Positions 14,981 to 42,940 of a DNA stretch of 58,723 nt are shown here, piece after piece. How positions within the stretch are numbered: position 1 is the stretch's first letter; each line of letters starts with the position of its first letter. A program made the translations under genes and the position numbers. Where the stretch lies: the IMG/VR virus record IMGVR_UViG_3300045955_000216, positions 1-58,723 of that record; one strand, written 5' to 3'. Under the pieces are notes generated by a model. That model was not told where the DNA came from. It ran no database searches and worked only from the letters and a program-made list of their open reading frames with translations. The DNA comes from a virus.

Positions 14981-15420
14981 GGCCTGTTTTCACTTGGTCG
15001 AAGCGGAGCAGTTATCTCAGGGGCCTGTGCCTCGCAGCGGCGCTCCTTGGGTGTAGCAGCGGGGGCGGCTCCGCCTCGAGCTCGACGGTCCCCGAGGCGC
15101 CGGTGACCTGGCGCGGCGCGACCGTCACCGGCGAGCGGCCGCGGAGCGCCCTGCCGCATCTCGAGGCCGGCTGGGCGGAGGGGATCCAGCGGGCGGGCGG
15201 GGCGGGCCCGAATCCGACCGGCTGGACGATCGAGCTCTACCCGGATCTCATTCGCGGCTGCGTCGATGCGCCGCTCTGCCTCGGGGAATTCGACCCGAGG
15301 ATCCGCCGGATTCGCGCGAGCTGGGAGGGCGGGATCGAGGAGACCCTGGCCGAGGAATTCTGTCACTACCACCGCGTTCGCCGGGGCCTGCCGACCGAGG
15401 GCGGCGGCTGTCCAACATGA
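14977..15420 (+). CDS. Lipoprotein of the lysogeny module, 147 aa
   Basis: A basic N-terminus, a hydrophobic stretch GLCLAAALLGC and Gly/Ser after the cysteine make a lipobox (LLGC at about 23-26). The mature domain has paired cysteines (GCVDAPLC) and EEFCHYHRVRRG near the end. It is expressed with repressor and integrase, as expected for a prophage surface protein such as a superinfection-exclusion factor; that role is inference. ATGA overlaps on both sides. Confidence 0.65.
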   Translation: MRPVFTWSKRSSYLRGLCLAAALLGCSSGGGSASSSTVPEAPVTWRGATVTGERPRSALPHLEAGWAEGIQRAGGAGPNPTGWTIELYPDLIRGCVDAPLCLGEFDPRIRRIRASWEGGIEETLAEEFCHYHRVRRGLPTEGGGCPT

Positions 15421-16448
15421 TCCGGCCGTTCGACGGCGCGCGCGGGCGCACCTATCGGTTCCGGATCGTCCGCCAGGGGCAGCTCTACCAGGGCAAGGGG
15501 TTCGCCTCTTACCAGGCCGCCCAGGACGCCGAGGACCTCCAGCTCGCGCGGCTCGCCGGCTCCGGGCTCCCGGCGAGTGACCTCTTCTGGGCCACGGCCG
15601 TCCAGCAGTACCAGGCGGCGAAGGCGAAGAAGGTGGACCTCCTCGCGCACGACGTCCCGCGGCTCGACTGGTGGGGCCGCTTCTTCGCCGGCCACCAGGT
15701 CGCCACGCTCGGGGGCATCACCCCGGAGCTCCTCGACCTCGCGAAGCTCCGCCTCGAGGCCGAGGGCCGACACGGGTCGACCCAGGTCCGCTACTTCGCC
15801 GTCCTGCGCGGGCTCTTCCGCCTGGCGATCCGCCGGCGGTGGGTCGTCGGCCTGGCGGACCCGACCGCGGCCGTCGACTGGCCGAAGGAGACCACGGTCC
15901 CGCGCCGGGTGCCCACGGCGCTCGAGGTCCGCCGGCTCGTGAATGCCGCCGAGCCCGTGATCCGGCCGCTCGTCCTGGTCGCGATGCTCACCGGCCTCCG
16001 GATCTCGTCCATCCTCCGGCTGACGGCCGAGGATGCCCGGATCCGGCCGGGGCTGCTCCGCGTGGTCCAGAAGGGCGGCCGCGAGCTCTGGCTCCCGATG
16101 ACGCCGGTCCTCGCGGCCGTCGTCCGCCGCGCGCCGTTCACCTGGCCGGACGGGCGCCGCGTGACGCGCTTTCCACGGAAGGCGTGGCGCCGGAGCCTCG
16201 CGGCCGCCGGCGTCGCCCCGTTCGGGTTCCACCAGCTCCGCCACCTGGTCGGCGACTGGCTCACTGAACGCCAGACGCACGGTCGGGTCGTCCAGGCGAT
16301 GCTCGGGCACTCCTCCCAGCGGATGACTGAGCGGTACACGCGGCCGCGGGATCCGGCCCTCCGGCGCGCCCAGGTGACGATGGCGCGCCTGCTCGGGCCT
16401 GTACCTCCGCGAGTACCCCCGCGTCAGCTAACTACGCGCCGCGGTTGA
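15417..16448 (+). CDS. int: Tyrosine-family site-specific integrase, 343 aa
   Basis: Arm-binding and core-binding domains occupy about 1-160 and the catalytic domain follows. Catalytic residues are visible: R195 in TGLRISS, K219 in VVQKGGRE, H272 and R275 in FHQLRH, H298 in LGHSS and nucleophile Y307 in TERYTRP. ATG 15417 overlaps the lipoprotein stop. The stop codon is directly followed by a partial tRNA-Phe gene, so the enzyme very likely recombines attP with a host tRNA-Phe gene. Confidence 0.92.
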   Translation: MIRPFDGARGRTYRFRIVRQGQLYQGKGFASYQAAQDAEDLQLARLAGSGLPASDLFWATAVQQYQAAKAKKVDLLAHDVPRLDWWGRFFAGHQVATLGGITPELLDLAKLRLEAEGRHGSTQVRYFAVLRGLFRLAIRRRWVVGLADPTAAVDWPKETTVPRRVPTALEVRRLVNAAEPVIRPLVLVAMLTGLRISSILRLTAEDARIRPGLLRVVQKGGRELWLPMTPVLAAVVRRAPFTWPDGRRVTRFPRKAWRRSLAAAGVAPFGFHQLRHLVGDWLTERQTHGRVVQAMLGHSSQRMTERYTRPRDPALRRAQVTMARLLGPVPPRVPPRQLTTRRG

Positions 16449-20131: not shown

Positions 20132-20581
20132 TCACGCGCGGACCTGGAGGAAGGTGTGTCGGCCGATCGTGGCCGTTACCTTGCTCGGGTCCACCTGGGT
20201 CGGGTCGTGCGGATGGGCGGCCCACGGCGGGAGTCGGCCCGCGTCGCGGAGGACCGTCTCGACGTTCAAGTAGTGGTCCGCCCCGTGGGTCGGATCCGGC
20301 AGCATCCGGAGGAGCGCCCCGCAGGCCGCCCGGTAGCACTCGTGATAGACGTCCGGATCAAGCCGATCGAGCGTCAGCCGGCGCGGGCTGTCCGTGTTCC
20401 ACGCCGAGAACTGCCAGGCCTTGAAGACCACGTCCTGGACCGACTCCCGCCAGCGGGCGCTCCGGTTCGCGATGACCCAGGCGACGGCGAGCTTCCCCTC
20501 GGGCGCCTCCCCTTCGGCCTCGAGGTACACGGTGAGCGCGCACCAGGAGAGGTCGTCGACCATCGGGATCCGCGGGCTCAT
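20132..20581 (-). CDS. SleB-type cell wall hydrolase (endolysin), 149 aa
   Basis: LTVYLEAEGEAPEGKLAVAW followed by VIANRS is the Hydrolase_2/SleB core, in which the first Glu is the presumed catalytic acid. FKAWQFSAWN and YHECYRAACGALL complete the fold. No signal peptide, so a holin should release it. ATG 20581 overlaps the upstream stop. Confidence 0.85.
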   Translation of the reverse strand: MSPRIPMVDDLSWCALTVYLEAEGEAPEGKLAVAWVIANRSARWRESVQDVVFKAWQFSAWNTDSPRRLTLDRLDPDVYHECYRAACGALLRMLPDPTHGADHYLNVETVLRDAGRLPPWAAHPHDPTQVDPSKVTATIGRHTFLQVRA

Positions 20582-20781
20582 CGCCGGCGCCCCTCGCGAA
20601 ACTCGCGGCGCATCTCCTCGACCGCCCTCGCCAGCCCCAGCATCGCCTCGACGAGGGTCGCCAGCTTGCCGTTCAGGCGCCAGAGAAAGACCCCGGCCAC
20701 CATCGCCGGAAAGCCGACCGCCTGAAACAGGTACACCGCCCACCGCAGGCTCGAGGGAAGATCCTCGGGCGCGTCGATCAT
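20578..20781 (-). CDS. Holin/i-spanin-like membrane protein, 67 aa
   Basis: AGGAG five bases before ATG 20781 selects this start. One membrane helix (AVYLFQAVGFPAMVAGVFLW) then a charged helix (LVEAMLGLARAVEEMRREFR). Such proteins occur beside endolysins as holins or holin accessories. Confidence 0.6.
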   Translation of the reverse strand: MIDAPEDLPSSLRWAVYLFQAVGFPAMVAGVFLWRLNGKLATLVEAMLGLARAVEEMRREFREGRRR

Positions 20782-20859: not shown

Positions 20860-23800
20860 TCATCGGCCGAGGCGCTCCCGGACCCCGTCGAGGAGGTCCC
20901 CGCGGGCGTCCCGCTGGGCCCGATGGACGATCGACTGGATCTCGCGCTTCTGCTCGTCGCGATCGAGCGCCCGGTAGGCCGGATCCTCGAGAAGGCCCAG
21001 GAGGTCCTCGCGGGCCTCGGCACCCCAGGTCCGGTGGTAGAGCCGGCGCTCCCGCTCGAGGAGCTCCACCTTCTCGCGGTCGACCGTGAGGCTCCGGGGC
21101 GGTGCGGCCGGGACGTAGCCGACCCGGGCGAGCTCCCGCTCGACGGCCTTGTCCGGCCGGGGGGCGTTCCGCCGGATCGGCGAGACCATCCGCTCGAGCG
21201 CCGTCTCGCCGCTCGTGAGGGCGCCGCCGAGAGCCCCGCGCTTCGCCGGGAGCTGGTTCCGGAGGCCGGGGAGCTGGGCCTGCATGGCCGCCACCGGCCC
21301 CTCGATCTCGCGCTCGGTGTCGTCCAGGCCGCGGGCGATCGACCCGAGGAGCCCGCCGGCCGGGATCATCCCGCGCGCCTGGCCCTCGAGCCACGACTCC
21401 CCGTACCGGAGCGGATCCGCGAGCATGTTGGAGAGCCCGAGGAGCCCGCCCAGGAAGGTCTTGTTCGTGATGTTCTGGGCCACGGCCCGGAGCATCGCGT
21501 CGGCCTTCTGTGCCGCCTTCTGCTCCTCACCGCCCCGGGCGAGCTCGACGATGTCGGCCGCCATCCCGAGGAGCCCGCCCACCGGCTCGAGCCGGTTGTA
21601 GGCGAAGGACCCGACGCCCGGCACCGTGACGCTGTAGGGCTGCCAGCCGGCCTCGCGCTTGGTGCGGAGCGTGTCCCGGTCCTCGCCGCCGCCGCCGCCG
21701 GTGACGTACCCCGCGGCCGCCAGGGCACCGGCGGCCAGCATGACCATCGACCCGAGGAACGGCCGCGCCAGGTCCTCGGCGAGCGCGCGCGGGACGCCCC
21801 CGAGCTCCCGCTGGCCCTGGGTGTACTCGCCCCGCCGGGCCCGCATCACGACCGGCACGAACCCGAGCGGCGTGCGCTCAAGCGTGGCCTTCATGATGTT
21901 CGCCGGCGTCCGGACAAACGGGATGACGTACCGGAGGGCCGGAATGGTCTCGCGGCCCCAGAGGACCCACTGGCCCATCTTCCCGAGCTTCTGCTGGAAC
22001 GTCCGGTAGTCCTGGGCGCCCTGGGCCCGGAGGAGCATCCCCGGCGTCGGGTCGGCGATCAGGGCCGACATCCGCCGCGCGAGGGCCTCGCCCTGGTGGC
22101 CCTCTTGGAGCGCGATCCGGAGCGCGCCGGCGTGAATCTCCGCGTCCCAGACCATCGCCTTGAAGGCCGCGTCCTCCGCGGAGAGCGCCCGGAGCGGGGC
22201 CCGGATGACGCGCCCCGCGCGGCCGCCGATCGCCGGCGGGCGCGCCTCGACGCGCCCCAGGTCGGCGCGCGTCTCGAGCTGCCAGGCCGCGACGGCCTTC
22301 CCGAGGGCCCGGCCGCTCGTGAGCGCCGACAGCATCCCCGCGACCTCGGCCATCCCCTCGCGGGCGAAGACCTCCCGCTGCCGGCCGGTGAGCTTCGCGA
22401 GGACCGCGTCGATCCCGCCGGCCAGCGTCCGCTCCGCGGTGTTCGACGCCATGAAGAGGGTGTTCCCGATCATGTTGGCCGCGTGCGATTGCGGGCCCGA
22501 GAGGATCGAGGACAACCAGGCCTCATAGAGCTTGTCGGACCAGCGGCGCTCCTGGGCCTTCCGGAGGAACGACGAGAGGCCGCGCGTGTCGCCGTCCGGC
22601 AGCGCGGCCGCGAGCTCGAGGACCTCGAGCGTCCGGGCCCGGTTCCGCGCGCCCGTGGCCTCGCCGCGCTCGCCCGTGACGGCGCCCTCCCCGCCGAAGA
22701 GCTCGAGGGCCGCCTGGAGCGCCTTCCCCTCAAGGGGCTTTCCGGCCTTGGCGCTCTTCGCCAGGATCCGGTGCGCGGCGAGCGCGCGCGCGATCTCCGT
22801 CGTCGCCCCTTCGACCTCGCCCTGGAGCGCGATGTGCGCGGCGGCCGCGCGCGCGAAGCGGTCGACCAGGGCGTCGGGGATCGGCTGGCCCTCGTGCTGG
22901 AGGGTCCGGTACTCCGCCTTGATCCCCGCGAGCCGCTCCGCCGAGGCCAGGAGAATGTTCCGCGCCTGCGTGATCTGCTCGGCGTTGAGCGTCCCGCCGA
23001 GGACCCGCCGGCGGATCCTGCCCTCGTCGAGGCCCGCCTCGAGGGACAGCCGCTCGATCTCCTCGAGCGTCATCGTGCCGCGGCGCCGCTCCATCATATG
23101 CCCGTGGTGCTGCTGGTGGAGCTGCGAGTACAGGTACTTCACGTCGACCGCCGTATCGAGCCGGTCGAGGTTCGTGCCGGTGTCGGTGTCCACGCCGGCC
23201 CGGCCGGTGGCCCGCACGACGAGGTCCGTGTCCGACGCGGTCGCGGTGGGCGCGGCGGCGCCGACGCTGCGCGCCGGCGTGGCCGCGGCGCGCGCGAGCC
23301 ACTTGGCGTGGGCGCCGCCGAAGAGGGCCTCCGATTTCGCGATGTCGGCCGCGCGCTCGGCGCGCTCGGCGGGCGTCAGGGTCTCCACCTTGCGGCCACG
23401 CCACTTCTCGTAGATTTTCCAGCCGGCGTCCTGCACGGCCCCGACGTCCTGGCCGACGAGCTGGAGCTCGGCGATCAAGCCCGTCGGGAGCTCGATGGCG
23501 ACGTGGATCGCGCGGTAGCCGCCGATCTTCGGCTTCTCGAGAAAGTTTTCGATGTCGACGACCGGAAACTCCCGGCCGACGGCCTCGAGGACCCGCGCGG
23601 CGTCCCCGGGGGCGTCGATCCAGACCCGGCCGCCTAGGTAGTCGACCCAGGCATCGCCCGGACGGGCCTGGAGCTTCTCGGTAATCCGGTGCTTGGCGTC
23701 GCTCTTGACCCTGGGCGGGTAGCGGTCCGGGAACGTCAGCCCCGGGGTATCGACGGCCAGCCGCCGGAGGCGCTGCTCGTACTGTGGCCGATCGTCCTCG

Positions 23801-26800
23801 GCGCGGGCCAGGAGGGTCGGGACGTCCGCCGTGTCCTGGTACGCCTCATAGGTCGGCTCGGACGGCAGCGGCGCGGTGTTCGGGCGCTCCGGCAAGGTGC
23901 GGAGGCGTGTGCGCCCTGGGGCGCGGACGACCTCGGCCGGGTCGAAATTTGCTATACTTGGGTCGATGGAGCCCACCGTGGTCAAGGTCTGGGAGGTCGG
24001 CCGCGAGGACGGGGGCGGATTTATCCGCACCGTCGAGCTCTCGAGCGGCTCGGTTCGCGGCGAGGTCTGGTCCGCCGCGGCCAAAGCCTGGATTCCGGCG
24101 CCCGGCATGGACGCGGGCCGGATCTTCCGCGCCTCTCGGCCCTCCGCCGAAGAGCTCGCCGCCGCCGGCATCCCCGCCTGACCCTCGAGGCTCTGCCCGA
24201 CCCGTATATCGCCCTGGGCCGCCATCCGCTCGCGGAGTCGCTCCTGGAGCGTGGCTTCATCGGCGGCGCCCCGCGCGCCTTCCCGGGACACCCCGCGCGA
24301 CGCGACGTACTCGCCGGTCGCCGGCTTCCCGAACCGGACCGCGTACACGCTGACGTGGCTGCCCGTCTGGAGGTCCTTGTCGGCGGCCTGGACGAGGAAG
24401 TTTAGCGTCCCGCCGACCGTCCCCGCGTTCCGGCCGGCGAGACCGGAACCCCGCCCGCTGCCCACGCGGAAGACGAGGTCCTCGCCCGGTTCCGCCTTCG
24501 GGTCGCCGAGGTTCTCGACGAACGTGCGATAGGCCCCCTGGGGTCGGAGCTCCTCGAAGAGGTTGATTCCGCGGAGCGCCTGGTCGAGCGGGATCGTCGA
24601 GAGGCGCCGCTCCGTGTACGCGCCGCCCTCGGGGAAGTAGTACCAGCCGCCCAGCTTGAAGCCGACCGGCGGCCGCGGATCCTCTCCGCCCCGCGGTTCC
24701 GCCGCCCCGACCCCGCCGAGGTCCGGCTCCCCCGCCGTGCGCGCCGCGAGGTCCGCCGGCGCCCCGAAGAGGTCGCCCTGGCCGGCGGCCCGCGTGTCGG
24801 CCTCGTCGCGCGCCTCGAAGTTGAAGAGGTTCCGCTCGCTCCGCTCCGACTCAAGGGGCGGCTTCGTCGACCCCTTCCGGATCGGGCCCGCCGACATCTC
24901 GCGCCGCTCGGTGCCGGGCATGACGTACTGGTCGCCGGCCTCGGTCTTCTCGACACGCGGCGCGGCCGCCCCTACGCCCTCGAGCTCCGGCTCCCCGGCG
25001 ACGCGGGCGGCGAGGTCGGCAGGCGGAACCGCCGTGGCCGCTCGTCCCCGAGGGACGTCAGGTGCGGCATCGCCCGCCGTAGCTCCCGCAGGACGACCGC
25101 CTGGTCCGCCTCGGAGAGCTTGGGGTAGCGCCTTGCGGAGGGCGCTGTACGTTTGTTCCCGGACCGCATGGCGTCCCTCCCCGGCCGCGAGGCGCGCGGC
25201 CCCCTGGTTGAGCACGTCGGCCACCGGGCCTTGGACGTGCTTCAAGCGATCGAAGAGCTCGAGCAGGACCGCGGCCTCCTGGCTGACGCCCTGGCTCCGG
25301 GCGACGTCAATCACGTTGCCCTCGGCCTGGAGCCGCTGCGCCGCGCGTGACTTGCTGACGGTCGAGAAGAGGCGCTTGTCCTGCGAGAGCCGATCGCGAA
25401 GGTCGGCGACCAGCTTGGCCTTCTCGACGACGGCCGCCTCTTGGCGCGTGTCAGTCCCGAAGAGCGTCTCCTCGGTGACCGCGCGGGTCGGCGCCGAGGC
25501 CGCCATCCCCGCGAGCTCGGCGACGTCCTTGTCCCGGAGCGGCCGGCGCTTCTCGAGGCGCTCGAGGGCCTGGACGAGCTTGAGCTGCGCGTCTGGATCC
25601 TGGACCCGCTCCCCGATCAGGACCGCCCGCGGCGTGGAGAGCTTCCCCGTCTGGACGCGCGCGAAGACGGGCGCCGTCAGGTTCCCGAGCGCGAGGCCTT
25701 CGCGGACCACCGACTCGCGCATCGGGACGCCCTGGGTGCGGAGCGTCTCGGCCGTAAGCCCGGTGTCGCGGAAGAACTTCGCCGCGTCGAAGGCGGTGCC
25801 CCGGCCCTCGGCGATGTTCATAAGCGCGCCGACCGCGCGCGCCTGCTCGGCCGTCTCGGCCTCGACCTCGAGGACGGCGATCGACGCCGGCGCGGACGGA
25901 TCCCCCGCGGCCCCGAGCTCGCGCGCCTTGTTGACGCGGTTGTGGCCGTTGAGGACCTTGAGGCGCTGGTCCGCGGGATCCCGCCAGACGGCGACGACGC
26001 CGGCGAGGTTGGGATCCCACCGCCGGACGCCGGTCAGGCTGCCGGTGCTGCCGCTCTTCTCCCGGTTGGAGACCTTGAACTGGAAGCGGTCTGGCTCGAG
26101 GTCCAGCTCGGCGAGCGGCACCTCGCGGACGCGGGTCGGCGCGGCCTCGGGGCCGGCCTCCACCCGGAGCTCGGCCTCGGTGGGGCCGATCATCCGCGCG
26201 GTGCCGGCCAGCCGGAGGCCCTCGCGGACCAGCGGACTGTCGGGATCCACGCCAAAGGCGCGGAGCTGTTGCGGGCCGAGGCCGTACTCCCGGAAGAACG
26301 CGGCCGCGTCCTGGGCGGAGGTCCCCGTCGTGGACGGGCGGTCCACCGCGAAGCCCTGCTCGGCGCTCGCCTTGGGTCGGCGGTCGCGCACGAGGTTGTC
26401 GACGACCCCGAGCGTCCGGGCGGTCTCGGCATTCGGGGCCTGGAGGAACCGGACCCGGATCTGCGGGACCCCCTGGGACTTCGCCAGGTTGAGCCGGTTG
26501 TGACCGTTGATGACGTACACCTGCCCGTCGGCCGGATCCCGCCAGACCAGGAGCCCGTTCCGGTCCCGCGCCGGGTCGTACCGCTGGCGGGGGTCGAACG
26601 TCCCGCTGGCGCCGCTCTCCGTCTCGAGGCCCGCCAGCTTGAACTGGAACCGGCCGGGGTCGGCCTTGACCGATCCGGTCGGGAGGAGCGCCTGGCCGGG
26701 CTCGAGCGGGATCTCCCGCGACGGGATCTCGGAAATCCCCTCCTGGGACGCCGGGGCGGGCCCAGGCGCGCGATCGGCCGGAGGGGCCGGTATCTCCCCC

Positions 26801-28710
26801 TCGGCGGCCTCGGCCTGGCGCGCCCGGATCGTCTCGAGGATCCGGGGCCCGCTGGCGGGTGGGGGCGTGACCTCCACCTGGCCGCCCTCGGGTGTCACGG
26901 GGGCGACCGCCGCGGCGGCCGTCTCGGCCTCCCCGGGGCGGGTCAGGACCGTTTGGACCTCGCGGCCAGCGTCGTCCTGGACCTGGACCTGGCTGGTTGG
27001 GTCGCCCGGGGTCGGCTTGGCGTCGACGCCGTACCCGAGGAGCCGCCCCGCCCGGCCAGCCCGGTACTCCTCGGCGACCCAGCGGTCGAGCATCCGGCCG
27101 GACAGCCCGGGCGGCGCCATCGCCTCGATGGCCGGCCGGCTGTAGTAGAGGGCGTTCCCGTTCGGGAGCTGGGCGACGCGGATCCGCTCGCCGCGCCGCT
27201 GGGCGCCCGGGCGAAAGTCGGCGTCCCACTCGAGCGGGACCTCGACCGCGGGCTTGTCGCCACGGGCCAGGGCGTTGAGCTGGGCCCGGACCGCCCGCGG
27301 GCTTTCCGGGAGCGTGCGGCGCTCGGCCTCGGCCTGGGCCGCTGCCTCGCGGGGGGCCGCCTGGGGCCCGCGGATGACGGCCCCACCGCCCGCGCCGAGA
27401 ATCCCGCCGATCGAGGCCGCCTCGAGGATCTCGCTCGACGGCGCCTGTTGGCCGGCCGCGGTCGCGCCGATGCCGGTCTGCATTCCTTCTTCGATCGCTT
27501 CGCCGGCGCCGCTCCGGAGGCCCCGCCGGACGAGCCTGCCCGTCCCGAGGATCGGGCTGAATCGTTGGGTGATGGTCAGGAGGAGCGCGTTCCCCACCGC
27601 CGCGCGGTTGCCGGCCGCGACCGCTTGCGTCGCGTCGCCGGTCTCGGCGAGGACGCGACTATACGTCTCGCCCGCGCCGGAGAGCGCCTGGCCGAGGCCT
27701 TCCACCGCGACGCCGGTGAGGCGCGCCAGGCGCGGCGCGATCTGCATGATCCGCGCGCTGACCGCGGCGGCGCCCATACCCGGGACCAGGAAGGCGGCCA
27801 GCGAGCCGATCCCCTGGAAGAGCTTGTCCGCATAGGTGGGATCCTTGACCCCGAGCGTGTCGGCGACCTCCGTCGCGGCCAGGCGGAAGTCCCGGAAGAG
27901 GTCCTCGGGGATCCCGACCTGACGCGCGAGAAGCTCGGCGCCGCCGGCCACACTCGCCACCGCCCCCGCGACGCCGGTCCCGACGCCCCGGCCGATCCGC
28001 TCGGCCGCGTTCATCGGTGGAGCCGGGCCTGGCTCCGGCCGGTCCGCCGCGACCCGCCGCGCGATGTCGGGGCTTGACTCCACGCCGGGGCCCACCTCCA
28101 CGCTCCCGCCCTGCCCGGACATCACGAGGGCCCGGGCGGCATCCGGCATGATCGCGCCCTGGGCGGCCGCGAGGCGGCGCCCCGTCGGGGTCCGGCCCGC
28201 CGCGTCCGGCTGGTCCAGGCCCGGGGTAACCTGGATCGGCCGCTCGCCGGCCAGGGGCGTCGTCACCGGGACGTCCGTGTTGCGCGCGACGGGCGGCGGG
28301 ACGGGCTGGCCGGTGCGCGTGTCCTTCCCGTCGACGATGAGGTTCGGATGGCCCGCCAGCTTGAACGTGCTCGGCCAGTGCCCCGTCGCGTCGGGGGCGG
28401 CGCCCGCGCGGTAGGCGGCGCGGTAGTCGTACTGGTGCGTGGGATCATCCGGATCCGGATGGAGGCCCTGCGCCTGGGCGTGCTTCGCGTACCAGGTGCG
28501 GAAGCCGGGGTCGTCGGGGCCGTCCTCGACGACCGTCCCGCCGGCGGAGACGGTGCCTTCCGCGCGGGCCCGCGGCGGCCGCTCGAGGCCGAAGAGTCGA
28601 TCGAGGTCGTCGACGCTCGGGCCCGACGCCGCGGCTGACGCGGCCGGGGTGCCGCGGGCGGCCGGCCCCGGCCCCCCGAAGAGCCGGTCCAGGTCTTCGA
28701 CCGTCGGCAC
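20860..28710 (-). CDS. Giant polyvalent ejection protein with ParB-like and RelA/SpoT-like domains, 2616 aa
   Basis: N-terminus carries two copies of VxDLDRLFG. Residues 60-120 hold a podoviral motif (YDYRAAYRAG, GHWPSTFK). About 230-470 is Gly/Ala-rich and membrane-like. Two DdrB-type ParB-superfamily domains follow (about 690-850 and 870-1010; VINGHNRLN and VLNGHNRVN). Near 1410 lies a small domain (VFRVGSGRG, SVYAVRFG) that could be ADP-ribosyltransferase-like. About 1610-1815 looks like a RelA/SpoT synthetase (VDYLGGRVWID, KPKIGGYRAIHVAI, AELQLV). The last 700 residues contain the polyvalent-protein pattern YEAWLSSILSGPQSHAANMI and hydrophobic segments. Phage polyvalent proteins enter the cell with DNA and act on the host. 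Acts between tail and coiled-coil ejection genes; the nested plus-strand gene at 23966 lies in a linker. Confidence 0.8.
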   Translation of the reverse strand: MPTVEDLDRLFGGPGPAARGTPAASAAASGPSVDDLDRLFGLERPPRARAEGTVSAGGTVVEDGPDDPGFRTWYAKHAQAQGLHPDPDDPTHQYDYRAAYRAGAAPDATGHWPSTFKLAGHPNLIVDGKDTRTGQPVPPPVARNTDVPVTTPLAGERPIQVTPGLDQPDAAGRTPTGRRLAAAQGAIMPDAARALVMSGQGGSVEVGPGVESSPDIARRVAADRPEPGPAPPMNAAERIGRGVGTGVAGAVASVAGGAELLARQVGIPEDLFRDFRLAATEVADTLGVKDPTYADKLFQGIGSLAAFLVPGMGAAAVSARIMQIAPRLARLTGVAVEGLGQALSGAGETYSRVLAETGDATQAVAAGNRAAVGNALLLTITQRFSPILGTGRLVRRGLRSGAGEAIEEGMQTGIGATAAGQQAPSSEILEAASIGGILGAGGGAVIRGPQAAPREAAAQAEAERRTLPESPRAVRAQLNALARGDKPAVEVPLEWDADFRPGAQRRGERIRVAQLPNGNALYYSRPAIEAMAPPGLSGRMLDRWVAEEYRAGRAGRLLGYGVDAKPTPGDPTSQVQVQDDAGREVQTVLTRPGEAETAAAAVAPVTPEGGQVEVTPPPASGPRILETIRARQAEAAEGEIPAPPADRAPGPAPASQEGISEIPSREIPLEPGQALLPTGSVKADPGRFQFKLAGLETESGASGTFDPRQRYDPARDRNGLLVWRDPADGQVYVINGHNRLNLAKSQGVPQIRVRFLQAPNAETARTLGVVDNLVRDRRPKASAEQGFAVDRPSTTGTSAQDAAAFFREYGLGPQQLRAFGVDPDSPLVREGLRLAGTARMIGPTEAELRVEAGPEAAPTRVREVPLAELDLEPDRFQFKVSNREKSGSTGSLTGVRRWDPNLAGVVAVWRDPADQRLKVLNGHNRVNKARELGAAGDPSAPASIAVLEVEAETAEQARAVGALMNIAEGRGTAFDAAKFFRDTGLTAETLRTQGVPMRESVVREGLALGNLTAPVFARVQTGKLSTPRAVLIGERVQDPDAQLKLVQALERLEKRRPLRDKDVAELAGMAASAPTRAVTEETLFGTDTRQEAAVVEKAKLVADLRDRLSQDKRLFSTVSKSRAAQRLQAEGNVIDVARSQGVSQEAAVLLELFDRLKHVQGPVADVLNQGAARLAAGEGRHAVREQTYSALRKALPQALRGGPGGRPAGATAGDAAPDVPRGRAATAVPPADLAARVAGEPELEGVGAAAPRVEKTEAGDQYVMPGTERREMSAGPIRKGSTKPPLESERSERNLFNFEARDEADTRAAGQGDLFGAPADLAARTAGEPDLGGVGAAEPRGGEDPRPPVGFKLGGWYYFPEGGAYTERRLSTIPLDQALRGINLFEELRPQGAYRTFVENLGDPKAEPGEDLVFRVGSGRGSGLAGRNAGTVGGTLNFLVQAADKDLQTGSHVSVYAVRFGKPATGEYVASRGVSREGARGAADEATLQERLRERMAAQGDIRVGQSLEGQAGMPAAASSSAEGREARKIRPASMPGAGIQALAAADQTSPRTEPLESSTVRINPPPSSRPTSQTLTTVGSIDPSIANFDPAEVVRAPGRTRLRTLPERPNTAPLPSEPTYEAYQDTADVPTLLARAEDDRPQYEQRLRRLAVDTPGLTFPDRYPPRVKSDAKHRITEKLQARPGDAWVDYLGGRVWIDAPGDAARVLEAVGREFPVVDIENFLEKPKIGGYRAIHVAIELPTGLIAELQLVGQDVGAVQDAGWKIYEKWRGRKVETLTPAERAERAADIAKSEALFGGAHAKWLARAAATPARSVGAAAPTATASDTDLVVRATGRAGVDTDTGTNLDRLDTAVDVKYLYSQLHQQHHGHMMERRRGTMTLEEIERLSLEAGLDEGRIRRRVLGGTLNAEQITQARNILLASAERLAGIKAEYRTLQHEGQPIPDALVDRFARAAAAHIALQGEVEGATTEIARALAAHRILAKSAKAGKPLEGKALQAALELFGGEGAVTGERGEATGARNRARTLEVLELAAALPDGDTRGLSSFLRKAQERRWSDKLYEAWLSSILSGPQSHAANMIGNTLFMASNTAERTLAGGIDAVLAKLTGRQREVFAREGMAEVAGMLSALTSGRALGKAVAAWQLETRADLGRVEARPPAIGGRAGRVIRAPLRALSAEDAAFKAMVWDAEIHAGALRIALQEGHQGEALARRMSALIADPTPGMLLRAQGAQDYRTFQQKLGKMGQWVLWGRETIPALRYVIPFVRTPANIMKATLERTPLGFVPVVMRARRGEYTQGQRELGGVPRALAEDLARPFLGSMVMLAAGALAAAGYVTGGGGGEDRDTLRTKREAGWQPYSVTVPGVGSFAYNRLEPVGGLLGMAADIVELARGGEEQKAAQKADAMLRAVAQNITNKTFLGGLLGLSNMLADPLRYGESWLEGQARGMIPAGGLLGSIARGLDDTEREIEGPVAAMQAQLPGLRNQLPAKRGALGGALTSGETALERMVSPIRRNAPRPDKAVERELARVGYVPAAPPRSLTVDREKVELLERERRLYHRTWGAEAREDLLGLLEDPAYRALDRDEQKREIQSIVHRAQRDARGDLLDGVRERLGR
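23950..23966 (+). promoter_or_regulatory. Extended -10 promoter of a leaderless transcript
   Basis: TGCTATACT (23950-23958) is followed after seven bases by ATG 23966, so RNA would begin at or next to the start codon. No good -35 is seen. It shares TGCTATA with P1 and P2. It lies antisense in the polyvalent gene. Confidence 0.5.
23966..24181 (+). CDS. Nested antisense small protein, 71 aa
   Basis: Encodes MEPTVVKVWEVGREDGGGFI, then RTVELSSGSVRGEVWSAAAK, AWIPAP and a C-terminal SAEELAAAG. It has normal amino-acid composition and mostly G/C third positions. The opposite strand here (polyvalent residues about 1510-1582) is low-complexity Pro/Ser/Ala with more A/T thirds. There is no ribosome-binding site but a -10 seven bases before ATG. 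It may be a small gene inserted into a linker, possibly an immunity-type partner of the adjoining domains; that is speculation. An accidental frame is the alternative. Confidence 0.5.
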   Translation: MEPTVVKVWEVGREDGGGFIRTVELSSGSVRGEVWSAAAKAWIPAPGMDAGRIFRASRPSAEELAAAGIPA

Positions 28711-40891: not shown

Positions 40892-42940
40892 TCACGGGGT
40901 CCGCATCCCGGCCTGGCGACGGGCCGTCGTGACGCCGTCCTTCGGGATCGGGAGCGCCCCCGGCTCGTAGGCGTTCGGCTGGCCCCGCTGGGTCCGCCCG
41001 GGGATCGGGGGCGGCCCGGCGGCCCCGGGCATCGCCGCCGCGGGCGGGGTGGCGACGGGGTTCCCGTCGGCGTCGATGAGGCCCTGCCGCTGCATGAGGG
41101 TCCGGATCCGGGCCAGGACCCGCTCCCGCTCCGGGATGTCCGAGAGCTCGACCACGAAGTCGACCAGGACCGGGGCCAGGGCCGGCGCGCGCTGGATCAG
41201 GTCCATGAGGGTCTGGGTCGCCTGCATCCGGGCGGTCGGGGTCGACGGCGAGTCGGCGATCATGACGTCGATCTTCACGTCGGGGATCCGGTTCGACGTG
41301 GTGATCGCGCCGCTCTCGGCGTCGACCTGGCGCTGGTTGAGGGTCACGAAGTCGGTGTCCGCCGCGCCGGTGTCCAGGCGGACCGTCCGCTCCGCGGTGT
41401 AGACCTGTTGGACGCGCTTCGCGAAGCGCCGGGCGATCTGCCGGCGGGACCGCTTGTAGTTGTCGAAGATGGCGGTCGCGATGATCTGCCCCTGTTGCTG
41501 CCGGCGCGCGATCGCGATGCCCGAGGCGTCGGCGTCCCGCTGCCCCATGAGGTCCGCGTTGACGCCGCTGATCTCCTTGATCTCCTGCTTCGCGACGGCC
41601 TGCATCTGCCAGACCCAGGGGGGCATCTGCGGCGGGGTGACCTGTTGCGGGACCGGGGCCTCGCGGCTCCGGAGCCAGTAGACGTGCCCGGCGCCCTGGC
41701 CGCTCTCGAGGCCGGACTCGTTCTCGAGGGTCCCGCGGTGGGCGAACCAGCGGATCGCGCCGAAGCGAGCGATGTTGTCGGCCATCGCGGAGCGGCGCTT
41801 GTTGACCTCCCGCTGGGGGTCCTTGAGGTTCCGGACGATGCCCAGGATCTCGTCGAGCTCGCGGTAGCAGACGAACGGGACGAAGGGGTAGTCCTGGGTG
41901 TCGTTCTCGAAGGGGTTCCCGTGCTCGAGCTCGATCCCGAGGGCCGGCAGGATGACGCTCATCTTGACCACGCGGCGCTGCCGGCGAATCACCCGGACGT
42001 CCTCGTCGCGCTGGGCCCAGGCCCGGGCGGCCTCGAGGGTGACGGGGTCGTCCGGGATCTCCTCGACGCGGTCCTCCCGGAGGTCCACGAGGAGGTGGAC
42101 CGTCTCCCACTCGCGGAACCAGGCTTCGACGATCCGGACCTCGTGGGCCGTCTCGTCGTAGAAGCTGATCGCGTCGAGGATGTCGCGCCGCCGGTAGTTA
42201 TCGAGCGGGTCGACGCCCTCGACGATCTGCTCGCGCACCTTGCCGGCGGCGACGGCGTAGGTCTCGACCGCCCGGCGAATATCCGTCTCGTGGTCCGGCC
42301 AGGCGGCCACCACGTCGTCGACCGGCACCATCCGATGCCAGAACTGCTCCCGGGCGTCGCTCCAGTCGTACCGCTCGCTGTAGGGATCGGCGAGCCACTC
42401 GCCCAGGCGGATCTTCCGGAGCTCGACCTCGCCGTGGATCGGGTCGCTGTCGTAGTTGATGCCGACCCGCCAGGTCCCCAGGCCCGTGACGACGCCGTCC
42501 TTGAAACCCTCCGAGAGGATCCACTCCCCGTCCTGGTTGTCCATCTCGCGCTTCATGAGGCGCCCCAGGAGGGTGACGTTCTCGAGGTCCTCGCGCCCCT
42601 CGGGGATCGGCTTGGCCTCGAGGCGCGCGGACCGCTCGTAGCCGGTCAGGACCTCGACGACCGGGCGGATCTCGTTGATCGTGAGGACCGTGCGCTCCTG
42701 GGCCTCGAGCTTCCGGCGGACGTCCGGATCCCACTGTTCGCCGATGACGAAGAGGTAGTCTTCGCCGGCCTGGCGGCGCCACCGCTGCCAGAGCGGGTGG
42801 GTCCAGTATTCGACGAACCGCTGCCGGAGCCGGTCCACGCGCGCCTGGGCCGCCGCCGGCTGGTCGGGCGACGCCGCGGCCCAATCGGGGTACCCGAGGA
42901 ACTTGCCAAGGGTCCGGGAGTGCAGCTCGCCGACGGCCAT
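40892..42940 (-). CDS. Portal protein, P22-like, 682 aa
   Basis: RFVEYWTHPLWQRWRRQAGE, YLFVIGEQWDP, RPVVEVLTGYERSARL, DGVVTGLGTWRVGINYD and WLADPYSERYDWSDAREQFW match P22-type portals. The C-terminal 150 residues are Pro/Gln-rich. Forms the dodecameric DNA gateway at one capsid vertex and docks terminase. Large for the family's core, as usual in this group. Confidence 0.88.
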   Translation of the reverse strand: MAVGELHSRTLGKFLGYPDWAAASPDQPAAAQARVDRLRQRFVEYWTHPLWQRWRRQAGEDYLFVIGEQWDPDVRRKLEAQERTVLTINEIRPVVEVLTGYERSARLEAKPIPEGREDLENVTLLGRLMKREMDNQDGEWILSEGFKDGVVTGLGTWRVGINYDSDPIHGEVELRKIRLGEWLADPYSERYDWSDAREQFWHRMVPVDDVVAAWPDHETDIRRAVETYAVAAGKVREQIVEGVDPLDNYRRRDILDAISFYDETAHEVRIVEAWFREWETVHLLVDLREDRVEEIPDDPVTLEAARAWAQRDEDVRVIRRQRRVVKMSVILPALGIELEHGNPFENDTQDYPFVPFVCYRELDEILGIVRNLKDPQREVNKRRSAMADNIARFGAIRWFAHRGTLENESGLESGQGAGHVYWLRSREAPVPQQVTPPQMPPWVWQMQAVAKQEIKEISGVNADLMGQRDADASGIAIARRQQQGQIIATAIFDNYKRSRRQIARRFAKRVQQVYTAERTVRLDTGAADTDFVTLNQRQVDAESGAITTSNRIPDVKIDVMIADSPSTPTARMQATQTLMDLIQRAPALAPVLVDFVVELSDIPERERVLARIRTLMQRQGLIDADGNPVATPPAAAMPGAAGPPPIPGRTQRGQPNAYEPGALPIPKDGVTTARRQAGMRTP

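What the first reader, a model, noticed from the sequence alone, without database searches (positions are those of the whole stretch)
23270..23900. RelA/SpoT-synthetase-like domain inside an ejected polyvalent protein
VDYLGGRVWID, KPKIGGYRAIHVAI and AELQLV follow the order and spacing of the (p)ppGpp synthetase core (metal Asp, substrate loop Tyr-His, catalytic Glu), with an upstream K/R-rich helix. If ejected with DNA it could alter alarmone levels or pyrophosphorylate another target on entry.
Basis: partly seen in the sequence, partly recalled or inferred. Interest (0 to 1): 0.8.

Follow-up and report, generated by a model that had tools for sequence, protein, structure and literature searches.

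The report
Alarmone-synthetase domain in phage ejection protein
A very large phage protein, probably injected into the bacterium with the phage DNA, carries a domain with the shape and active-site residues of the enzymes that make the bacterial stress signal (p)ppGpp; this is a kind already described in 2017, and this is a good new example of it.

Summary
Residues about 1578-1808 of a 2616-aa protein (20860-28710, minus strand) form a RelA/SpoT-type synthetase domain. Pfam RelA_SpoT matches only below its cut-off. A profile of the domain and nine relatives finds (p)ppGpp synthetases in the PDB at E down to 3.6e-9. AlphaFold2 gives a confident fold (pLDDT 82, pTM 0.80) that aligns to small alarmone synthetases at Z up to 14.2; unrelated folds start at 5.7. 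All eight catalytic positions checked are kept. The C-terminus resembles podophage "internal virion protein D", so ejection is likely but inferred. Nine of ten family rows lie in frames over 1000 codons, some with DarB-like, ddrB-ParB, LPD38 or helicase modules. Iyer et al. 2017 already described RelA/SpoT domains in phage polyvalent proteins and proposed this role; MuF-Apk2 prophage toxins are a tested parallel. So: a new member of a known kind. One oddity: syn4 has Val where canonical synthetases have Arg, in nine of ten family rows, so the acceptor is open. No alarmone hydrolase was found in the record.

The parts
20860..28710 (-). polyvalent, internal-virion-protein-like giant, 2616 aa (GTG start)
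   Evidence: open frame and coding bias; phrog_21, phrog_6651, phrog_2206; tblastn to podophage internal virion proteins
23287..23979 (-). RelA/SpoT-type synthetase domain, residues 1578-1808; well-modelled part about 1620-1809
23674..23712 (-). syn1: R1667, K1669, K1679 (RelSeq R241, K243, K251), predicted ATP-phosphate contacts
   Evidence: residue roles recalled
23623..23646 (-). syn2: VDYLGGRV with D1690 (RelSeq D264, metal) and R1695 (R269)
   Evidence: role recalled
23503..23538 (-). syn3 / acceptor loop: EKPKIGGYRAIH with K1728, Y1732, H1736 (K304, Y308, H312)
   Evidence: role recalled
23455..23472 (-). syn4: AELQLV with E1748 (E323, catalytic), Q1750 and the odd V1752 in place of R327
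   Evidence: role recalled
25183..26748 (-). ParB/DdrB-like repeats (two NGHNRxN motifs, near residues 734 and 920), residues about 655-1176
   Evidence: phrog_21 4e-71; tblastn to Prochlorococcus and uncultured phages; motif positions. Pfam ddrB-ParB itself did not reach E<=1 in the window protein
21088..22626 (-). C-terminal region like podophage internal virion protein D, residues 2029-2541
   Evidence: best 2e-25, Roseobacter phage CRP-361; several hits annotated internal virion protein D; phrog_6651 1.4e-29
20132..20743 (-). downstream neighbour: cell wall hydrolase (endolysin-like)
   Evidence: PF07486 5.8e-13
40892..42940 (-). context: P22-like portal
   Evidence: PF16510 2.7e-107
15417..16448 (+). 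context: integrase (temperate phage)
   Evidence: phrog_1 1.3e-35

Best explanation
It is an RSH-superfamily pyrophosphokinase (synthetase) domain built into an internal virion protein of a temperate podovirus with a P22-like portal. Packed in the head, the protein is ejected with the genome; inside the host the domain moves the pyrophosphate of ATP to a 3'-OH acceptor, most likely GDP/GTP, giving a burst of (p)ppGpp-like alarmone that slows host transcription and translation during takeover or biases the early infection decision. Shown here by computation: homology, fold, retained active site, family, protein context. Inferred: ejection, activity, acceptor, benefit to the phage.
For: Profile homology to (p)ppGpp synthetases, 3.6e-9. 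AF2 pLDDT 82, pTM 0.80. Foldseek: the 50 PDB rows shown are RSH enzymes; VIA Z 14.2 to 2be3, 14.1 to RelQ (5ded), 11.1 to Tas1 and to SaEAS, with non-RSH rows starting at 5.7. Eight of 8 catalytic positions match the majority of 21 reference rows while background identity to that majority is 14% over 178 columns. Syn2 Arg and syn3 His are kept, both of the guanosine type by the signatures in PMC12226406 section 16. C-terminus like internal virion protein D and gene order portal, coat, giant protein, lysis gene, tail spike (order read by me). Relatives of the domain lie in clear polyvalent proteins.
Against: I saw no activity test of this family in print. Syn4 Arg (RelSeq R327) is Val in this family, against Arg in 21 of 24 non-family rows. 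RelSeq N306 is Gly here (my reading). Two relatives in the same kind of protein, L020 and L021, have lost Y308 and H312. The window's own Pfam score is below the curated cut-off. Ejection rests on resemblance to proteins named internal virion protein D, not on virion data. The 8-of-8 probability (1.5e-7) is optimistic, as the alignment is anchored on those motifs.
Confidence: 0.62

Rival explanations
1. Same fold and chemistry but another acceptor: tRNA 3'-CCA (toxSAS-like) or adenosine nucleotides ((p)ppApp, Apk-like), so the effect on entry is translation block or ATP drain rather than a (p)ppGpp signal.
For: Family-wide syn4 Val instead of Arg (9 of 10 family rows). In the quick tree the family groups (SH-aLRT 94, not starred) with two Tas1/Apk-like proteins, L003 and L038, rather than with long RSHs and SASs; L003 matches Tas1 at 2.3e-5. 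CapRel and Tas1 are among the structural matches.
Against: Syn2 Arg and syn3 His are kept, unlike the Apk signatures RYT, GxN and YH reported in PMC12226406; L003 and L038 carry His at the syn4 position and lack the syn2 Arg, the window does not. Structural Z is highest to SAS enzymes, not to CapRel or FaRel2, though such a ranking does not fix the substrate.
Confidence: 0.23
2. Catalytically weak or dead relic: the domain survives as a structural or binding module of the giant protein, or as a decoy.
For: Two of 10 family rows (L020, L021) have lost the acceptor-loop Tyr and His; the window domain is the most diverged full-length row by profile score (208.9 bits against 245.3-270.7 for the eight others; the cut L016 has 161.4).
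Against: All eight catalytic positions are intact in the window domain and in five of the nine other family rows (L006, L015, L017, L018, L019); L024 and L016 have Arg for Lys at position 304.
Confidence: 0.12
3. It is a polymorphic-toxin style effector used by lysogens against competitors (like MuF-Apk2), not an entry factor.
For: An integrase marks a temperate phage; MuF-Apk2 prophage toxins have an alarmone-synthetase domain on a virion-associated protein (PMC12226406).
Against: The domain is internal, not C-terminal; no HD_4 alarmone hydrolase in the record (0 of 1), and the next gene downstream is a cell wall hydrolase, whereas apk2 is followed by iapK and aph1 immunity genes. A small unrecognised immunity protein is not excluded.
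Confidence: 0.1
4. Chance motif resemblance.
For: The single-sequence Pfam score is under the cut-off.
Against: Profile, fold and relatives all agree.
Confidence: 0.01

Closest known systems
RelA/SpoT domains of phage-type polyvalent proteins (Iyer et al. 2017, PMC5512222)
   Same: RelA/SpoT NTase domain inside a giant multi-domain phage protein, in company with DdrB-like ParB domains; same proposed role.
   Different: [quoted passage not shown] here a 72% GC temperate podovirus of unknown host. I could not compare with their sequences (figures are not held).
MuF-Apk2 prophage toxins (PMC12226406)
   Same: Alarmone-synthetase domain on a virion-associated protein of a temperate phage.
   Different: There a MuF N-terminus, C-terminal toxin, (p)ppApp product, immunity genes iapK and aph1; here an internal domain, no MuF match, guanosine-type syn2 and syn3, no hydrolase found.
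Small alarmone synthetases (RelQ/YjbM, RelP/YwaC)
   Same: Fold (Z about 14) and catalytic residues.
   Different: Stand-alone cytoplasmic enzymes (recalled); Arg at syn4 where this family has Val.
Exported alarmone synthetases incl. SaEAS, and Tas1/Apk1 (PMC12691689)
   Same: RSH synthetase delivered out of the producing cell; SaEAS and Tas1 among structural matches (Z 11.1).
   Different: Delivered by secretion systems, not by a podovirus internal virion protein; syn motifs of the Apk type differ.

Membership tests
RSH (RelA/SpoT) synthetase superfamily | RSH synthetase fold | tested here: met
   AF2 pLDDT 82, pTM 0.80; Z 13-14 to SAS structures, non-RSH rows from 5.7 down
RSH (RelA/SpoT) synthetase superfamily | catalytic residues R241, K243, K251, D264, K304, Y308, H312, E323 (RelSeq numbers) | tested here: met
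   8 of 8 kept
RSH (RelA/SpoT) synthetase superfamily | recognised by the curated PF04607 model | tested here: inconclusive
   window 16.2-22.6 bits against a cut-off of 27; 4 of 4 relatives scanned whole are over it
RSH (RelA/SpoT) synthetase superfamily | pyrophosphokinase activity | not testable with these tools
   needs biochemistry
Canonical (p)ppGpp synthetase (SAS or long RSH) | syn4 E-x-Q-x-R | tested here: not met
   Val for Arg; Arg in 21 of 24 non-family rows, Val in 9 of 10 family rows
Canonical (p)ppGpp synthetase (SAS or long RSH) | long form: HD hydrolase next to the synthetase | tested here: not met
   no HD_4 in the record
Phage-type polyvalent protein | giant multi-domain phage protein with DdrB-ParB, LPD or DarB-type modules | tested here: met
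   window: phrog_21-type ParB-like repeats and phrog_6651; relatives: ddrB-ParB and LPD38 (L015), DarB-like, SNF2, phrog_6651 (L018)
Phage-type polyvalent protein | carried in the virion and ejected | not testable with these tools
   inferred from similarity to internal virion protein D
MuF-Apk2 toxin | N-terminal MuF domain | tested here: inconclusive
   no MuF model among matches at E<=1 in Pfam or E<=0.01 in PHROGs; a missing weak match is not proof
MuF-Apk2 toxin | adjacent (p)ppApp hydrolase Aph1 (HD domain) | tested here: not met
   PF13328 HD_4: 0 of 1 record; control rings in 10 of 14 genomes
MuF-Apk2 toxin | syn motifs RYT (syn2), GxN (syn3), YH (syn4) | tested here: not met
   window has GGR, AIH, LV

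The most novel reading that the evidence does not exclude
The phage polyvalent RelA-like domains form an effector-type RSH group of their own (guanosine-type syn2 and syn3, Val at syn4, ejected with DNA) that pyrophosphorylates an acceptor other than GDP/GTP/ATP, as the first act of infection.
Probability: 0.2. Interest if true: 0.72.

Novelty: new member of a known kind. Interest (0 to 1): 0.42.

Why it matters
If the domain is active and ejected, the phage would deliver a ready-made stress-signal enzyme at entry, before any phage gene is expressed, and directly manipulate the stringent response. The enzymatic work that I saw is on MuF-Apk2, toxSAS and secreted enzymes; a compact, intact domain from a podovirus ejection protein gives a clear construct to test the 2017 prediction for polyvalent proteins, and the Val at syn4 raises a specific question about acceptor choice.

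Tried and rejected
Close relatives: single-sequence scans of viral contigs with the whole protein and with the domain found none; tblastn of the window domain and of the L009/L018 domain against 50,697 phage records found none. The named plasmid hits I opened were an Enterococcus, a Rhodococcus and an archaeal RelA-type gene, an Arcobacter RelA/SpoT gene, and a Photobacterium place with two Tas1/Apk-like genes.

P22-like portal in the viral records of relatives: 0 of 7; the domain is thus not tied to one head module, but these records may be fragments.

Neighbour stretch at residues 1386-1520: an ADP-ribosyltransferase-like pattern was my recollection; AF2 on the single sequence gave pLDDT 54, so no claim is made. 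NCBIfam gave nothing for the window protein. Portal tblastn gave only distant phages of many hosts, so the host stays unknown. Absence of a family from the structural lists is not taken as evidence.

Papers seen: PMC5512222 passages and section 22; PMC12226406 outline with abstract and sections 3, 12, 16, 18; PMC12691689 outline with abstract, section 9 and passages; PMC11559606 passages; PMC7824862 and PMC11699363 passages; others in search listings only. I saw no enzymatic test of a polyvalent-protein RelA domain in the listings of the seven answered searches (the last returned none); most subscription papers are not held.

Rows dropped before counts: 34 of the 52 loci scored were aligned (other long RSHs left out); the 21 reference rows leave out L003, L038 and L072; L016 (cut fragment) was left out of the tree, so 33 rows. 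Relative L007, near-identical to L015 over the shared domain and cut at the contig end, was left out of A4.
Full report
What is there. The window is a 58,723-base virus record, 72% GC, with a P22-like portal, a PF13252 coat protein, a terminase large subunit, an integrase, RecT/exonuclease and a lysis and tail-spike end. On the minus strand at 20860-28710 lies a 2616-aa protein. Its parts: ParB/DdrB-like repeats at about 655-1176 (phrog_21; tblastn), the RelA-like domain at 1578-1808 (numbers it 1598-1827 because it counts from the previous stop, 20 codons earlier), and a C-terminal part at 2029-2541 similar to podophage proteins, several annotated internal virion protein D, with phrog_6651 'internal virion protein'. 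Internal virion protein D is the T7 gp16 class, which enters the cell with the DNA (recalled).

Is the domain real? Alone it matches PF04607 at E=4.6e-4, 20.9 bits, below the 27-bit cut-off, and no other family. Scans with growing alignments gave eight distinct IMG/VR contigs and two MAG contigs with relatives. Nine of the 10 members of alignment A4 match PF04607 at E<=1 on their own, best 6.1e-11. The A4 profile finds RSH enzymes in the PDB, best YwaC at 3.6e-9. AF2 on A4 gives pLDDT 82.0 and pTM 0.80; stretches under 50 are model residues 1-9 and 29-42, in the N-terminal part. Foldseek against the PDB: 59 matches at E<=0.001, the 50 shown being RSH enzymes. VIA: 2be3 Z 14.2, RelQ 14.1, YwaC 13.8, Tas1 and SaEAS 11.1, CapRel 10.7, RelSeq 9.0, FaRel2 6.8; the first non-RSH rows are at 5.7. 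Foldseek against BFVD: 18 matches at E<=0.001, several in phage proteins of about 1000 aa or more described as RelA/SpoT, DdrB-like or ART-PolyVal-like.

Active site. From the printed alignment to RelSeq and the multiple alignment: R1667=R241, K1669=K243, K1679=K251, D1690=D264, R1695=R269, K1728=K304, Y1732=Y308, H1736=H312, E1748=E323, Q1750=Q325. Eight of 8 positions usually called catalytic match the majority residue of 21 reference rows, at 14% identity over 178 other columns (roles of residues recalled). Within the 10 family rows R241, K243, K251, D264 and R269 are kept in 10; Y308 and H312 in 8 (lost in L020 and L021); E323 in 9 (L016 is broken there). RelSeq R327 is Val in 9 of 10 family rows and Arg in 21 of 24 others, His in the two Apk-like rows and Lys in one archaeal row. 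Signatures in PMC12226406 section 16: syn2 AVR, syn3 SxH, syn4 IR for guanosine enzymes; RYT, GxN and YH for adenosine enzymes. The window's GGR, AxH, LV is guanosine-like at two of three and like neither at syn4.

Family and context. Frame lengths in codons, stop to stop: L018 3819, L019 3001, L017 1029, L006 1412, L024 1122, L020 3913, L015 2434, L021 3983, window 2636, L016 423 (frame-broken); several are cut by contig ends. So 9 of 10 rows lie in frames over 1000 codons. L018 carries DarB-like antirestriction, SNF2-type helicase and phrog_6651 parts; L015 carries ddrB-ParB and LPD38. In a quick tree of 33 rows the nine phage rows are one side of a branch with weak support (47) and group with the Apk-like L003 and L038 at SH-aLRT 94; long RSHs are one side of a branch at 99*. 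None of seven viral records of relatives has the P22 portal. In 294 genomes of the phylum of the Pirellulales MAG the profile rang in 5 at E<=1e-5, of which only the MAG itself scored like a family member (253 bits; next 42). The family is rare and patchy, as far as these scans reach.

How it would work. Ejection with DNA (inferred), then pyrophosphate transfer from ATP to a 3'-OH (inferred from kept residues), most likely of GDP/GTP (weakly inferred). Consequence: alarmone burst, lowered host transcription and translation, possibly a push of the lysis-lysogeny choice in this temperate phage (inferred). The record has no HD_4 alarmone hydrolase and the downstream gene is a cell wall hydrolase, so the toxin-plus-immunity arrangement of MuF-Apk2 was not found.

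What is known. Iyer et al. [quoted passage not shown] The finding is therefore a well-supported new member of a known kind, with an open question on acceptor specificity.

Noticed in passing
L020 and L021 (IMG/VR contigs), residues about 494-712 of giant frames: Relatives with an intact metal Asp and catalytic Glu but a changed acceptor loop (GFRSHT in place of GYRAIH), suggesting altered or lost acceptor binding.
   Followed up: partly
L003:5776-6564 and L003:6718-7605 (Photobacterium plasmid): Two neighbouring Tas1/Apk-like genes with hydrophobic N-termini, 49% identical, one matching Tas1 at 2.3e-5; no gene is listed there in the plasmid table.
   Followed up: partly
L018 (3819-codon frame): One protein joins the RelA-like domain, a DarB-like antirestriction part, an SNF2-type helicase and an internal-virion-protein C-terminus.
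   Followed up: partly
window 24150-24555, residues 1386-1520: A beta-rich stretch between the ParB-like repeats and the RelA-like domain that no library named; single-sequence AF2 pLDDT 54.
   Followed up: partly
L016:1082-2350 (Anaerolineae MAG): A relative of the domain in a short contig whose frame breaks after the acceptor loop; decayed prophage or assembly error.
   Followed up: no
L005:2452-5463 (archaeal plasmid): A roughly 1000-aa protein annotated RelA whose synthetase-like part matches the phage family profile at 47.9 bits, with Lys at the syn4 Arg position.
   Followed up: no
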